Origin: an uncultured Hyphomicrobiales bacterium
GTDB lineage: Bacteria > Pseudomonadota > Alphaproteobacteria > Rhizobiales > Xanthobacteraceae
Direction of reading: 5' to 3'
DNA: 64,000 bases
Assembly (NCBI GenBank): GCA_903839845.1
Contig: CAIMEA010000006.1
Span: forward strand, 1 to 64,000
Shown: positions 11,145 through 63,020 of the stretch, in pieces
How positions within the stretch are numbered: the stretch's first letter is position 1
Layout: the number at the start of each line of letters is the position of its first letter
Notes under the pieces: model-generated
Told to the model about the DNA's origin: nothing
Seen by the model: only the letters and a program-made list of their open reading frames with translations
Databases searched by the model: none
Translations under genes and position numbers: made by a program

Positions 11145-11151
11145 TTTTTAC

Positions 11152-11245
11152 TGTCATGCCCGCGCATGCGGGCATCCAGCAATTTGCCGCATCGTTGAAA
11201 CTTGAATGCTTAAATTCTGGATCACCCGCCTTCGCGGATGATGAC
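11152..11245. repeat. Dispersed palindromic repeat, family A copy 1
   Basis: The left arm is TGTCATGCCCGCGCATGCGG plus GCATCCAG, and the right arm is CTGGATCACCCGCC plus TTCGCGGATGATGAC. Together they form a long imperfect inverted repeat. Related copies are at 29094-29156 and 54201-54275. This copy ends 21 bases before the nitrile hydratase alpha start, so it forms part of that operon's leader region. Confidence 0.7.
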
Positions 11246-11266
11246 AATTGGTGGTATAGTCGGGCC

Positions 11267-11896
11267 ATGGCCCACGACCACGACCACGACCACCATCATC
11301 ACGATCACGAACACTCCGAACTGTCGGAGACGCAGTTGCGCGTGCGCGCGCTGGAAACCGTGCTGACCGAGAAGGGTTACGTCGACCCGGCAGCGCTCGA
11401 CGCCATCGTCGAGGCCTATGAAACCAAGATCGGCCCGCGCAACGGCGCGCGCGTCGTCGCCAAGGCGTGGACCGACCCGGCCTTTAAAAAAGAGCTGCTC
11501 GACGACGCTACCAAGGCTATCAATGCGCTCGGTCACATCGCACGCACCGGCGACCACCTGATCGCGGTCGAGAACACGCCGCAGCGCCACAACATGGTCG
11601 TGTGCACCTTGTGCTCCTGCTATCCGTGGGAAATGCTCGGCCTGCCGCCGGTCTGGTACAAGGCCTCGCCCTATCGCTCGCGCGCGGTGAAAGACCCGCG
11701 CGGCGTGCTGCGCGACTTCGGCGTCACCTTGTCAGCCGACACTGAAATTCGCGTCTGGGATTCGACCGCCGAGACGCGCTTTCTCGTGCTGCCGATGCGG
11801 CCCGCCGGCACCGAAGGCTGGAGCGAGGAGCGCCTCGCCGAGATCGTCACCCGCGACAGCATGATCGGCACCGGCCTGCCAAAGGCCGCGCCATGA
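11267..11896 (+). CDS. nthA: Nitrile hydratase alpha subunit, cobalt type
   Basis: A 209-residue alpha subunit that hydrates nitriles to amides with a non-corrin metal centre. The metal claw is [11 protein letters not shown] near residues 107-117: three cysteines and a serine, with the Thr between the first two that marks cobalt enzymes (iron types have Ser). The two outer cysteines would be oxidised after translation. The N-terminus is unusually histidine-rich ([19 protein letters not shown]), perhaps for metal acquisition. Downstream blocks [15 protein letters not shown] and [18 protein letters not shown] are standard. The TGA stop overlaps an ATG at 11893. Confidence 0.96.
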
Positions 11897-11928
11897 ACGG
11901 CGTCCACGACATTGGTGCTTTGTCGTGA
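11893..11928 (+). CDS. Mini-frame [11 protein letters not shown] imitating the beta-subunit N-terminus
   Basis: This 11-codon frame starts at the ATG that overlaps the alpha stop (ATGA) and ends in a TGA that overlaps the GTG start of the beta gene (GTGA at 11925-11928). Its first six residues, MNGVHD, equal those of the beta subunit 32 bases later. The two copies match at 22 of 32 bases, and the differences in codons 3 and 4 are synonymous. It may be a translational-coupling leader or a decayed duplicate of the beta start. Translation is inferred from the overlaps only. Confidence 0.4.
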
Positions 11929-12584
11929 ACGGGGTTCACGACATGGGCGGCATGGACGGTTTCGGAAAAGTGGAGCCGGAGCCGAACGAGCCGACCTTCC
12001 ATGAAAAATGGGAAGGCCGCGTGATGGCGATGGTGCGCGCGGTCGGCGCCAATGGCGGCCTCAATATCGACTCGCAGCGCTTCGCCCGCGAGTCGCTGCC
12101 ACCGGATGTCTATCTCGCCAGCTCTTATTACAAGAAGTGGTTTCTGGCCATTGAAGATCAGATGGCGGCGCGCGGAATCGTCGGCCGCGACGAGGTCGAT
12201 GCCGGCCATTCGCTGCGGCAAAGCCCGCCGTTGAAGCGCGGCAAATTCACCATTGACGACGTCCCGCGCATCATGGTGCGTGGCAGTTTCGGCCGCGAAG
12301 CCAAAGCGCCGGCGCTGTTCGAGCCGGGCGATCGCGTGCGCGCCAGAAACATCAACCCGGTGACGCATACGCGGCTACCGCGCTATGTGCGCGGCCATAT
12401 TGGTATCGTCGAACGAATTAATGGCTATCACGTTTTCCCGGATACGGCCGCGCACGACAAAGGCGAAAATCCGCAATGGCTTTATACGGTCGTGTTCGAC
12501 AGCCGTGACTTGTGGGGCGACGATGCCGACCCGACGTTGAAGGTTTCGATCGATGCGTTTGAGCCGTATCTGGAGAAGGCGTGA
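11925..12584 (+). CDS. nthB: Nitrile hydratase beta subunit
   Basis: A 219-residue partner of the alpha subunit. It starts at GTG 11925 with [20 protein letters not shown], the usual beta N-terminus. Typical features are FHEKWEGRVMAMVRAVG, the ARGIVGRDEVDAG region, and the C-terminal SH3-like barrel from about residue 120 (FEPGDRVRARNINPVTHTRL, RGHIGIVERINGYHVFPDT). Conserved beta arginines that contact the oxidised cysteines lie in the family; RYVRGHIG is visible here. The beta stop overlaps the accessory-gene start (TGATG). The start codon is GTG rather than the ATG 32 bases earlier, which leads only to a mini-frame. Confidence 0.95.
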   Translation: MNGVHDMGGMDGFGKVEPEPNEPTFHEKWEGRVMAMVRAVGANGGLNIDSQRFARESLPPDVYLASSYYKKWFLAIEDQMAARGIVGRDEVDAGHSLRQSPPLKRGKFTIDDVPRIMVRGSFGREAKAPALFEPGDRVRARNINPVTHTRLPRYVRGHIGIVERINGYHVFPDTAAHDKGENPQWLYTVVFDSRDLWGDDADPTLKVSIDAFEPYLEKA

Positions 12585-12964
12585 TGCCTAACGCCACCGC
12601 GATGCAGGCCGCCAAGGCCGTTCCCGGCATTCCGCAGGATGAGGACGGGCCGGTGTTCAATGAGCCTTGGCAAGCGCAGGCCTTCGCCATGACTTTGGCT
12701 CTGTACGACCGCGGGCTGTTCACCTGGGGCGAATGGGCGGCAACATTGGCCGACGAGATCAAGCGCGCGCAAGCGGCCGGCGATCCCGACACCGGCGAGA
12801 CCTATTATTCGCACTGGCTGGCGGCATTGGAAAGACTGGTGGCGGAAAAAGGCGTGGCGACGCGGGAGACCCTGCATCGCACGCGCGACGCCTGGGACCA
12901 TGCCTGCGACCGCACGCCGCACGGCCAGCCGATCGAATTACGCGCCAGCGATTTCCACGAGTAA
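12584..12964 (+). CDS. Nitrile hydratase accessory protein (metallochaperone/activator)
   Basis: A 126-residue protein starting at ATG 12584, overlapping the beta stop. The blocks VFNEPWQAQAFAMTLALYDRGLFTWGEWAATLADEI (split here at the family core) and TYYSHWLAALERLVAEKG belong to the beta-like activator family (P14K/NhlE-like), which helps insert cobalt, typically as a complex with the alpha subunit that swaps into the holoenzyme. The alpha-beta-activator order is the common one in cobalt operons. A GTG at 12581 could add one residue. Its 3' end overlaps the convergent nitronate monooxygenase gene by 27 bases. Confidence 0.9.
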   Translation: MPNATAMQAAKAVPGIPQDEDGPVFNEPWQAQAFAMTLALYDRGLFTWGEWAATLADEIKRAQAAGDPDTGETYYSHWLAALERLVAEKGVATRETLHRTRDAWDHACDRTPHGQPIELRASDFHE

Positions 12965-14069: not shown

Positions 14070-15158
14070 TCAGACGCCGATCATTCGTTCACTGACCATA
14101 TAACCCATCAGCAGCAGCGCGCCGAACGCGACGATAAAGCCGGCGGCGGCGGTCTCGGCGCCGCGCAGCAGCAACATGCCGGCGCCGGGCTTGGCCTTGG
14201 CGAGCTTGCCGGCCAGCCCGCGCGCACCGACGGCAATCGTGGCGATCGCCGACACGGTGATAGCGGTGCCTAAGCCCATCACGAATGTCGAGGCGACGCC
14301 GATCCAGAACATGCCCTGCGCCAGCGCGAATACCAGAACGATGATCGCGCCCGAGCAGGGCCGCAGACCGACCGCGACGATGGCCGACAGGCCGCGCTTC
14401 CACCAGTCGCGGCCGCCCAGTTCGCGCGGCTCCGGCGCATGCGCGTGGCCCCAGGCATGCCCTTCGTCGTCGTGGTCGTGATGATCGTGTGCGTGCCCAT
14501 GATCGTGCGCATGATCGTGGCCATGATCGTGAGCGTGATGATGATCGTGCGTATGCGAATGATCGTGATGCGCGTGGCCATGCGCCGGCGCTTTCGCCTC
14601 GGCCCGCATGAGATTGAGAAAGGCGCGGCCCTTGACCCAAAACAGCCGCAGTCCGATCAGTACGATCAGGCCGTAGCTGACGACTTCGATAACGCGCACG
14701 GTGTCGCCCATGACCTTGGAGGTCGCGCCGAGCAGCACCGCGACGATGGCGACGACGGCAACCGCGGTGATCGCCTGCAATATCGCCGAGGCGAAGGACA
14801 GCGCGATGCCGCGCCGCCAGGTCTCGTCATTGGCGACAAGATAAGACGAGATCACCGCCTTGCCGTGACCGGGGCCGGCGGCATGAAACACGCCATAGGC
14901 AAATGAAATGCCGAGCAGCGCCCATGTGGCGCTGCCGTCGGCCTTGGCGGCGCGGATCGCGCCCGACAGCATGCGGTAAAAGTCGGACTGCTGATGCAGC
15001 ACCCAGCCGGTAAAGCCGCCGACGTCGGGCTGCGCCGGTCCGCCGGAAGCGCCGAACGGCGCGGCGTGCGCCATGTCTATGGCGCCCGCGATCGCCAAAA
15101 CAAGGCCGGTCACGATTAAGCATTGCGTCAGGGCAGAGCGCCGCGAAAGCCACGTCAT
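14070..15158 (-). CDS. Nickel/cobalt transporter, NicO (RcnA-like) family
   Basis: A 362-residue membrane protein. The family motif FHAAGPGHGKAVISSYLV is near residues 91-108. About six helices surround a long His/Asp-rich cytoplasmic loop (roughly residues 192-240, repeats of HDH and HAHDH) that would bind metal. The second half has VAVGLRPCSGAIIVLVFALAQG, also typical. The protein may export or import Ni or Co. The neighbouring DUF1007 protein is a common partner. Position 1.1 kb from a cobalt nitrile hydratase operon invites a cobalt role (inference). Confidence 0.9.
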   Translation of the reverse strand: MTWLSRRSALTQCLIVTGLVLAIAGAIDMAHAAPFGASGGPAQPDVGGFTGWVLHQQSDFYRMLSGAIRAAKADGSATWALLGISFAYGVFHAAGPGHGKAVISSYLVANDETWRRGIALSFASAILQAITAVAVVAIVAVLLGATSKVMGDTVRVIEVVSYGLIVLIGLRLFWVKGRAFLNLMRAEAKAPAHGHAHHDHSHTHDHHHAHDHGHDHAHDHGHAHDHHDHDDEGHAWGHAHAPEPRELGGRDWWKRGLSAIVAVGLRPCSGAIIVLVFALAQGMFWIGVASTFVMGLGTAITVSAIATIAVGARGLAGKLAKAKPGAGMLLLRGAETAAAGFIVAFGALLLMGYMVSERMIGV

Positions 15159-15206
15159 GGTCGATCAGTCCCCGTCGCGCGCCCCGCGGATTTGAAAGCA
15201 ATCGGA

Positions 15207-15860
15207 TTACGGACAATGCACCAGAATCTTGTTGGCGAATTCGGCGCCGATCGCCATCGACACGTTCGGCTGGTCGGCCGGAATTTCGCTGAGCTTCTTG
15301 CCCTCGGCATAGGTCATTTCGCGCGGCAGCACAGTGTCGAGCTTGCAGCCCGATGGCGCGCCGGAAAGCTGGACCGGGTCCTTCTTGGGAAATTCGAAAT
15401 CGACGAAGATGGTCGGATCGTAGATATCGACTTTCAATTCCTTGAACTTCACCGGCTTCTCGAACGGAATAGTGAAGTGCAGCGTCAGCACGGCGTTTTC
15501 GTAACTGAGATGGTAATCCGGCAGCGGCTCGCCCATCTTGGCCTTCTTGCCGTCGACCGTCGCATAGGTGAAGTAGTCATACTCCTTCAGCGACTCGACA
15601 TTGACCTTGGCCAGCGGCGCCAGCTCCTCGCGGGTGAACTGGCCCTTCACCTTGCTCTCATAGCCCTGCGTGGCGAAGGCGGAAAACATGTCGTCGAAGG
15701 CCCAGTCGTGCCGGACTCCGGTGACCGTGCCGTCGGGCGCAAACACGACTTCGGAATGCATCGCCACCCAGACATGCGGATGCGCTTGAGCCGGCGCGGC
15801 GAAGGCCAGGCTGAGCGTGGTGGCAATGAGGGACAGGATCGGGGTTTTCATGGACGGCAC
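15207..15860 (-). CDS. DUF1007 family periplasmic protein, partner of NicO transporter
   Basis: A 217-residue protein with a signal peptide (MPSMKTPILSLIATTLSLAFAAPAQA) whose mature end is HPHVWVAM, a likely metal-binding HPH. The blocks VRHDWAFDDMFSAFATQGY and DYFTYATVDGKK are characteristic of DUF1007. The gene is 48 bases upstream of the NicO gene on the same strand. DUF1007 proteins are regularly encoded beside NicO transporters and probably handle the metal in the periplasm (family knowledge plus inference). Confidence 0.88.
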   Translation of the reverse strand: MPSMKTPILSLIATTLSLAFAAPAQAHPHVWVAMHSEVVFAPDGTVTGVRHDWAFDDMFSAFATQGYESKVKGQFTREELAPLAKVNVESLKEYDYFTYATVDGKKAKMGEPLPDYHLSYENAVLTLHFTIPFEKPVKFKELKVDIYDPTIFVDFEFPKKDPVQLSGAPSGCKLDTVLPREMTYAEGKKLSEIPADQPNVSMAIGAEFANKILVHCP

Positions 15861-62947: not shown

Positions 62948-62957
62948 CGCAAGCAAT

Positions 62958-63003
62958 AACGGCGCGCCGTTTCTTGGGAAGTCCCGGGAAACGGCGCGTC
63001 GTT
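62958..63003 (+). terminator. Intrinsic terminator after the OFA transporter
   Basis: AACGGCGCGCCGTTTC and GAAACGGCGCGTCGTT pair over sixteen positions with one mismatch, separated by a fourteen-base loop, and TCTTTAG follows. It is eleven bases past the transporter stop. Confidence 0.8.
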
Positions 63004-63020
63004 TCTTTAGGACGCAACGC

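What the first reader, a model, noticed from the sequence alone, without database searches (positions are those of the whole stretch)
11893..11928. Nitrile hydratase alpha and beta genes linked by an 11-codon frame that copies the beta N-terminus
The ATG overlapping the alpha stop does not start beta. It opens [11 protein letters not shown], then TGA, and this TGA overlaps the GTG that starts the true beta protein (MNGVHDMGG). So alpha stop/mini start (ATGA) and mini stop/beta start (GTGA) form a double coupling. The two copies are 32 bases apart, not a multiple of three, and the changes in codons 3 and 4 are synonymous. This could be an old duplication kept as a coupling device that sets the alpha:beta ratio, or simple decay.
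Basis: partly seen in the sequence, partly recalled or inferred. Interest (0 to 1): 0.6.

Follow-up and report, generated by a model that had tools for sequence, protein, structure and literature searches.

The report
Tiny relay frame between enzyme genes
Between the two genes of a nitrile-degrading enzyme lies a 32-base copy of the second gene's start, found once or twice over in seven related bacteria, which forms a tiny frame that could hand ribosomes from the first gene to the second.

Summary
At 11893-11928 an 11-codon frame ([11 protein letters not shown]) overlaps the nitrile hydratase alpha stop (ATGA) and the beta start (GTGA); its 5' part copies the beta start 32 bases away. It is neither an error nor a one- or two-base frameshift. 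Six of 43 genomes searched in the genus (Pseudolabrys by several record titles) and one of 11 in a second genus of the family carry it; two of the seven have two mini-frames in series. All nine units are exactly 32 bases and each stop overlaps the next start by four. Other relatives mostly have the plain four-base alpha/beta overlap. Because RTGA contains TGA, any start-copy spaced 3n+2 bases makes a mini-cistron that ends on the next start. Most likely the mini-frame relays terminating ribosomes across a 28-base gap that would otherwise break coupling, and opens a predicted hairpin over the beta start. That is inferred; there are no expression data. Within the genus a shared 9-base linker points to one origin and repeated loss, but carriers are scattered as if at random on the gene tree and some copies look re-made, so exchange or new gains stay open. 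Selected device and harmless relic are both possible.

The parts
11267..11896 (+). nitrile hydratase alpha subunit gene
   Evidence: Pfam NHase_alpha E 1.2e-88
11893..11928 (+). mini-frame [17 protein letters not shown]
   Evidence: sequence; open and of the same length in all carriers found
11893..11924 (+). copy 1 of the 32-base repeat unit (23 bases like the beta start, then a 9-base linker)
11916..11924 (+). linker TGCTTTGTC (TGTTTTGTC or TCTTTTGTC in other first copies of the genus; AGCTTGGTC and AGCTGGGTC in G196), not part of the beta start
11893..11896 (+). ATGA overlap: mini start / alpha stop
11925..11928 (+). GTGA overlap: beta start / mini stop
11921..11943 (+). TGTCGTGAAC-GGG-GTTCACGACA, predicted 10-bp hairpin that buries the beta start
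   Evidence: predicted -13.0 kcal/mol alone; start codon unpaired probability 0.00 in context
11925..12584 (+). nitrile hydratase beta subunit gene, GTG start (copy 2 of the repeat at its 5' end)
   Evidence: Pfam NHase_beta_N and NHase_beta_C; N-terminus aligns with PDB beta chains
12581..12964 (+). activator-like gene homologous to the beta N-terminal domain; overlaps the beta stop (GTGATG)
   Evidence: Pfam NHase_beta_N E 2.7e-13

Best explanation
It is one unit of a 32-base tandem repeat of the beta start, lying between the alpha and beta genes of a nitrile hydratase operon. Each unit is a mini-cistron whose stop codon lies in the start (RTGA) of the next copy. A ribosome that finishes alpha restarts at the mini ATG, reads 11 codons, stops on the TGA inside GTGA and restarts at beta. 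The mini-frame so bridges a 28-base gap that would otherwise cut termination-reinitiation, and its ribosome opens a hairpin that hides the beta start. Shown: the anatomy, seven carriers in two genera, intact frame and length in all nine units. Inferred: that ribosomes use it and that it changes the amount of beta.
For: Seven of 391 family genomes carry it: six in the genus, one (G196) in a second genus with a beta only 64% identical; G031 and G196 have two units each. All 9 units are 32 bases (3n+2), have no early stop and end GTCRTGA on the next start. In the six genus carriers the first copies share T at unit base 24 and TTTGTC at bases 27-32, whereas beta codon 8 in 80 named loci is GGC (75), GGG (3) or GGT (2). 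First copies of these six differ about as much as the genes do (mean identity 82% v 84%). The alpha-beta distance is -4 in 74 of 80 named loci, so tight coupling is the family norm; in six native E. coli and Haloferax pairs about 20 nt nearly abolished coupling, and in two E. coli pairs the last 15 nt of the upstream gene sufficed (PMC10666635). Hairpin stem of 9-10 bp over the beta start in 5 of 6 genus carriers (L036 has one mismatch) v 8-9 bp in 4 of 14 close non-carriers; G196 has a 9-bp stem by my reading. In L018 a repeat-like insert separates alpha from the mini-frame by 172 bases; its mini ATG has the strongest Shine-Dalgarno-like match of the sites scored (-11.9), beta only -3.3.
Against: No expression or ribosome data. 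14 of 20 close nitrile hydratase operons of the genus do without it. Shine-Dalgarno-like energies do not differ between carriers' beta starts and non-carriers (p 0.39) nor between first copies and non-carriers (p 1.0). Folding energies are similar (means -17.8 v -16.8), and many non-carriers also have a buried start (mean unpaired 0.06 v 0.32; L038, a carrier, 0.37). The linker test gives 0.01 at the fourfold-site rate, 0.09 at the all-site rate, assumes vertical descent and covers six genomes only; in G196 the linker reads TTGGTC and TGGGTC instead of TTTGTC.
Confidence: 0.6

Rival explanations
1. Harmless relic. A tandem duplication of length 3n+2 couples itself because RTGA holds a TGA, so it costs little; it drifts along and is lost by slippage, with no function of its own.
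For: Patchy presence: with one origin inside the genus, 7 losses on the LeuS tree and 9 on the alpha+beta tree. 13 of 14 close non-carriers show the plain 4-base overlap.
Against: Direct repeats 32 bases apart should be lost easily (general knowledge), yet seven lineages keep them with no length change. Changes in codons 1-6 of the six first copies fall mostly on third positions (9 of 12, p 0.004, codon range chosen after seeing the data; 10 of 18 over the whole unit, p 0.053).
Confidence: 0.25
2. Repeated gains, or exchange of the junction between species by recombination, rather than one old duplication with losses.
For: Carriers are scattered: 6 parsimony steps, the same as in 2909 of 5000 label shuffles and the maximum. 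G196 lies outside the genus on the gene tree, yet its second copy and beta start share GTGAACGGGGTTCACGACAT with L001, L032 and L033. In L018 the first copy is closer to its own beta start (91%) than to other first copies (at most 83%); L036 ties (87%).
Against: A similar 9-base linker in six genomes; first copies of L001, L032 and L033 share ATTGGT, absent from their beta starts; TTTTGTCRTG is not enriched in the own genome (7 v 8 in the control).
Confidence: 0.1
3. Ribosomal frameshift from the mini-frame into beta, giving beta an N-terminal extension.
For: The frame offset and a T-run before the stop.
Against: No canonical slippery heptamer in phase (read by eye); family chains begin MNGIHD; G196 lacks the T-run.
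Confidence: 0.02
4. Assembly or sequencing error.
For: Several carriers are metagenome bins by their titles.
Against: Seven separate genomes with diverged versions, one of them (G019) in two contigs.
Confidence: 0.01

Closest known systems
Termination-reinitiation at 4-base gene overlaps (Huber et al. 2023, PMC10666635; abstract, passages and section 7 read)
   Same: RTGA overlaps, heteromeric enzyme subunits, need for very short distances
   Different: Here two or three overlaps in series, through an 11-codon cistron copied from the downstream gene's own start
mgtQ, the 8-codon ORF between mgtC and mgtB of Salmonella (PMC8092293; outline and abstract read)
   Same: Short intergenic ORF; the downstream ribosome site is in a stem-loop that its translation opens
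   Different: mgtQ depends on destabilising acidic codons; here direct stop/start overlaps and origin by duplication of the start
Synthetic bicistronic design (PMC5995908; search listing with start of abstract only)
   Same: A short leader cistron feeds the next gene
   Different: Engineered, ahead of a single target gene; here natural and between two genes

Membership tests
Cobalt-type nitrile hydratase operon, order alpha-beta-activator | alpha, beta and activator genes in this order | tested here: met
   Pfam; this gene order described in PMC3511329 (passages). The alpha motif CTLCSC is seen; its cobalt-type meaning is recalled
Termination-reinitiation gene pair | stop and start overlap or lie very close | tested here: met
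   ATGA and GTGA; alpha to beta alone is +28
Termination-reinitiation gene pair | downstream translation depends on upstream termination | not testable with these tools
   needs reporters
mgtQ-type intergenic uORF | downstream start hidden in a structure that uORF translation opens | tested here: inconclusive
   hairpin predicted; opening not testable
mgtQ-type intergenic uORF | acidic codons Asp2 and Glu5 that destabilise the ribosome | tested here: not met
   [11 protein letters not shown] has one Asp, codon 6; requirement
Variable-number tandem repeat switch (phase variation) | unit copy number differs | tested here: met
   0, 1 or 2 extra units between species
Variable-number tandem repeat switch (phase variation) | copy number switches within a population and alters expression | not testable with these tools
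   one genome per species held

The most novel reading that the evidence does not exclude
A reinitiation ladder: a self-coupling 32-base repeat whose copy number (0, 1 or 2 mini-cistrons) evolves, or even switches, to tune the ratio of two enzyme subunits, and which spreads between genera as a junction cassette with its hairpin.
Probability: 0.23. Interest if true: 0.75.

Novelty: new variant of a known kind. Interest (0 to 1): 0.53.

Why it matters
It suggests a simple route by which bacteria can add or remove translation relays between subunit genes: any start-copy spaced 3n+2 bases couples itself. Natural species with 0, 1 and 2 relays make the question of how reinitiation sets a subunit ratio directly testable, in an enzyme of industrial use (recalled).

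Tried and rejected
Genome-wide element: TTTTGTCRTG occurs 7 times in the own genome against 8 for the reversed control, and no other start duplication was seen in 325 kb, about 8% of the genome with the window included. Rejected.

Linker as the edge of a repeat element: 12 distinct TGTCAT-type edges in genus loci and the window have nine different 4-base flanks; the one seen four times lies in the beta gene by my reading. Not supported.

Stronger or weaker Shine-Dalgarno at beta: no difference. rpoB tree: dropped because 8 of 20 genomes gave no match; LeuS was used instead, G036 with 458 of 878 codons; rooted on G008 by choice.

On checking, the four unread one-mismatch hits were read: L129 (G196) is a carrier with two units, L118, L120 and L128 are unrelated, L119 and L127 are plain beta starts. 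The family was then searched again with the two-start pattern.

Literature: 'nitrile hydratase' with 'translational coupling' gave one paper, unrelated by title and abstract; 'Pseudolabrys' with 'nitrile hydratase' one, likewise. Searches (20 of 61, 20 of 1809, 6 of 6 and 4 of 4 papers listed) show none whose listing describes this arrangement. Only open-licence PMC papers are held.

Full report
What is there. The window holds a nitrile hydratase operon: alpha 11267-11896, beta 11925-12584 and an activator-like gene 12581-12964. All stated details are right. The beta start is the usual one: it aligns from residue 1 with solved beta chains, three of which were shown and begin MNGIHD.

Relatives. 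In the 80 named loci the alpha-beta distance is -4 in 74, +28 in 3, +60 in 1, and 158 and 211 in one each. The +28 and +60 cases are carriers. A search for two start copies in 391 genomes of the family finds seven carriers: G000 (window), G002, G019, G030 and G033 with one extra copy, G031 with two, and G196, in a second genus, with two. That is 6 of 43 genomes searched in the genus, 1 of 11 in the second genus and 0 of the other 337. The same search in 397 genomes of the order, 378 of them not in the family set, found only the window's own. The pattern needs a start like MN-G-x-HD, so beta genes that begin MDG or MDS are invisible to it; in the second genus I read eleven junctions from ten genomes, and only G196 is a carrier. 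Twenty genus genomes have a close nitrile hydratase (beta 75% identical or more): 6 carriers, 14 not; 13 of the 14 have the plain 4-base overlap and L045 a 158-base insert.

One unit, nine times. Every unit is exactly 32 bases: MNG[VLMI]HD, four loose codons, then Ser and the stop, GTCRTGA. The start motif RTGA holds a TGA one base on, so any copy placed 3n+2 bases upstream ends exactly on the next start. In G031 and G196 the chain is alpha, mini, mini, beta.

Age and origin. On an alpha+beta codon tree of 27 loci (beta codons 1-15 left out) carriers are mixed with non-carriers: L034 is sister to L032 (support 93), L011 to L036 (81), and L038 stands beside L039-L041 (98). The presence label takes 6 steps, as many as 2909 of 5000 shuffles, so it shows no clustering. 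A LeuS tree of 20 genomes shows the same mixing, some nodes weak. One origin within the genus needs 7 losses on LeuS and 9 on alpha+beta. For one origin: all six first copies in the genus end T-[GC]-[CT]-TTTGTC, which is not in the beta start; they differ about as much as the genes do (82% v 84%); and those of L001, L032 and L033 share ATTGGT while their beta starts share GTGAACGGGGTTCAC. Against: in L018 the first copy is closest to its own beta start (91% v at most 83% to other first copies) and L036 ties, and G196, whose gene groups with those of its own genus (support 86), has a different linker end but shares GTGAACGGGGTTCACGACAT with L001, L032 and L033. Re-duplication, conversion or exchange of the junction therefore probably occurred as well.

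Structure. The last linker bases and the beta start form TGTCGTGAAC-GGG-GTTCACGACA: a predicted 10-bp hairpin in the window, L032, L033 and L038, 9 bp in L018, one mismatch in L036 (the simple count gave 0 and 5 for the last two because of the larger loop and the mismatch). Codon 4 is GTG in 60, GTC in 11 and GTT in 9 of the 80 named loci. Four of 14 close non-carriers have 8-9 bp stems, so the hairpin is not unique to carriers (Fisher p 0.05 for 5 of 6 v 4 of 14, 0.01 if L036 is counted; not corrected for descent), and overall fold energies are alike.

How it probably works. Published measurements on six native gene pairs show that about 20 nt between stop and start nearly abolishes reinitiation; in two E. 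[quoted passage not shown] The duplication would put 28 nt (60 with two units) between alpha and beta; the mini-frames close each step with a 4-base overlap. An intergenic 8-codon ORF that frees a hidden start is known from Salmonella mgtQ (PMC8092293). L018 adds a hint: a repeat-like insert cuts the mini-frame off from alpha by 172 bases, yet the mini-frame is intact and has a good Shine-Dalgarno-like match, while beta has a weak one.

Against. 14 close relatives do without it; no ribosome data; Shine-Dalgarno strengths do not differ overall (p 0.39); the linker test gives 0.01 or 0.09 depending on the rate used and G196 breaks the linker. A harmless relic that couples itself remains a serious rival.

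Verdict. Real, shared by seven species of two genera, mechanism plausible from published rules, adaptive value unproven. A new variant of termination-reinitiation coupling.

Noticed in passing
L018 (G019), between alpha and the mini-frame: About 170 bases of palindromic repeat-like sequence lie between GTCGTGAAC and GTCATGAAC, which look like a 9-base target duplication (8 of 9 equal); it ended the alpha overlap.
   Followed up: partly
62949-63010: Two copies of a palindrome AACGGCGCG[CT]CGTTTCTT spaced 32 bases before the next gene, possibly tandem terminators.
   Followed up: no
11145-11260: Repeat-like palindromes (ACTGTCATGCCCGCGCATGCGGGCATCC) just upstream of the alpha gene.
   Followed up: no
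14070-15860, minus strand: A NicO-family transporter with a His-rich loop and a DUF1007 protein lie near the metal enzyme operon (Pfam); alpha itself has a His/Asp-rich N-terminus.
   Followed up: partly
first copies of the repeat in six genus carriers: Base changes in mini codons 1-6 fall mostly on third positions (9 of 12; range chosen after the fact), as if the peptide MNGxHD or conversion with the beta start constrained them.
   Followed up: partly
L129/L203 (G196) and L001, L032, L033: Carriers of two genera share the 20-base beta start GTGAACGGGGTTCACGACAT although their beta genes are only 68-70% identical.
   Followed up: partly
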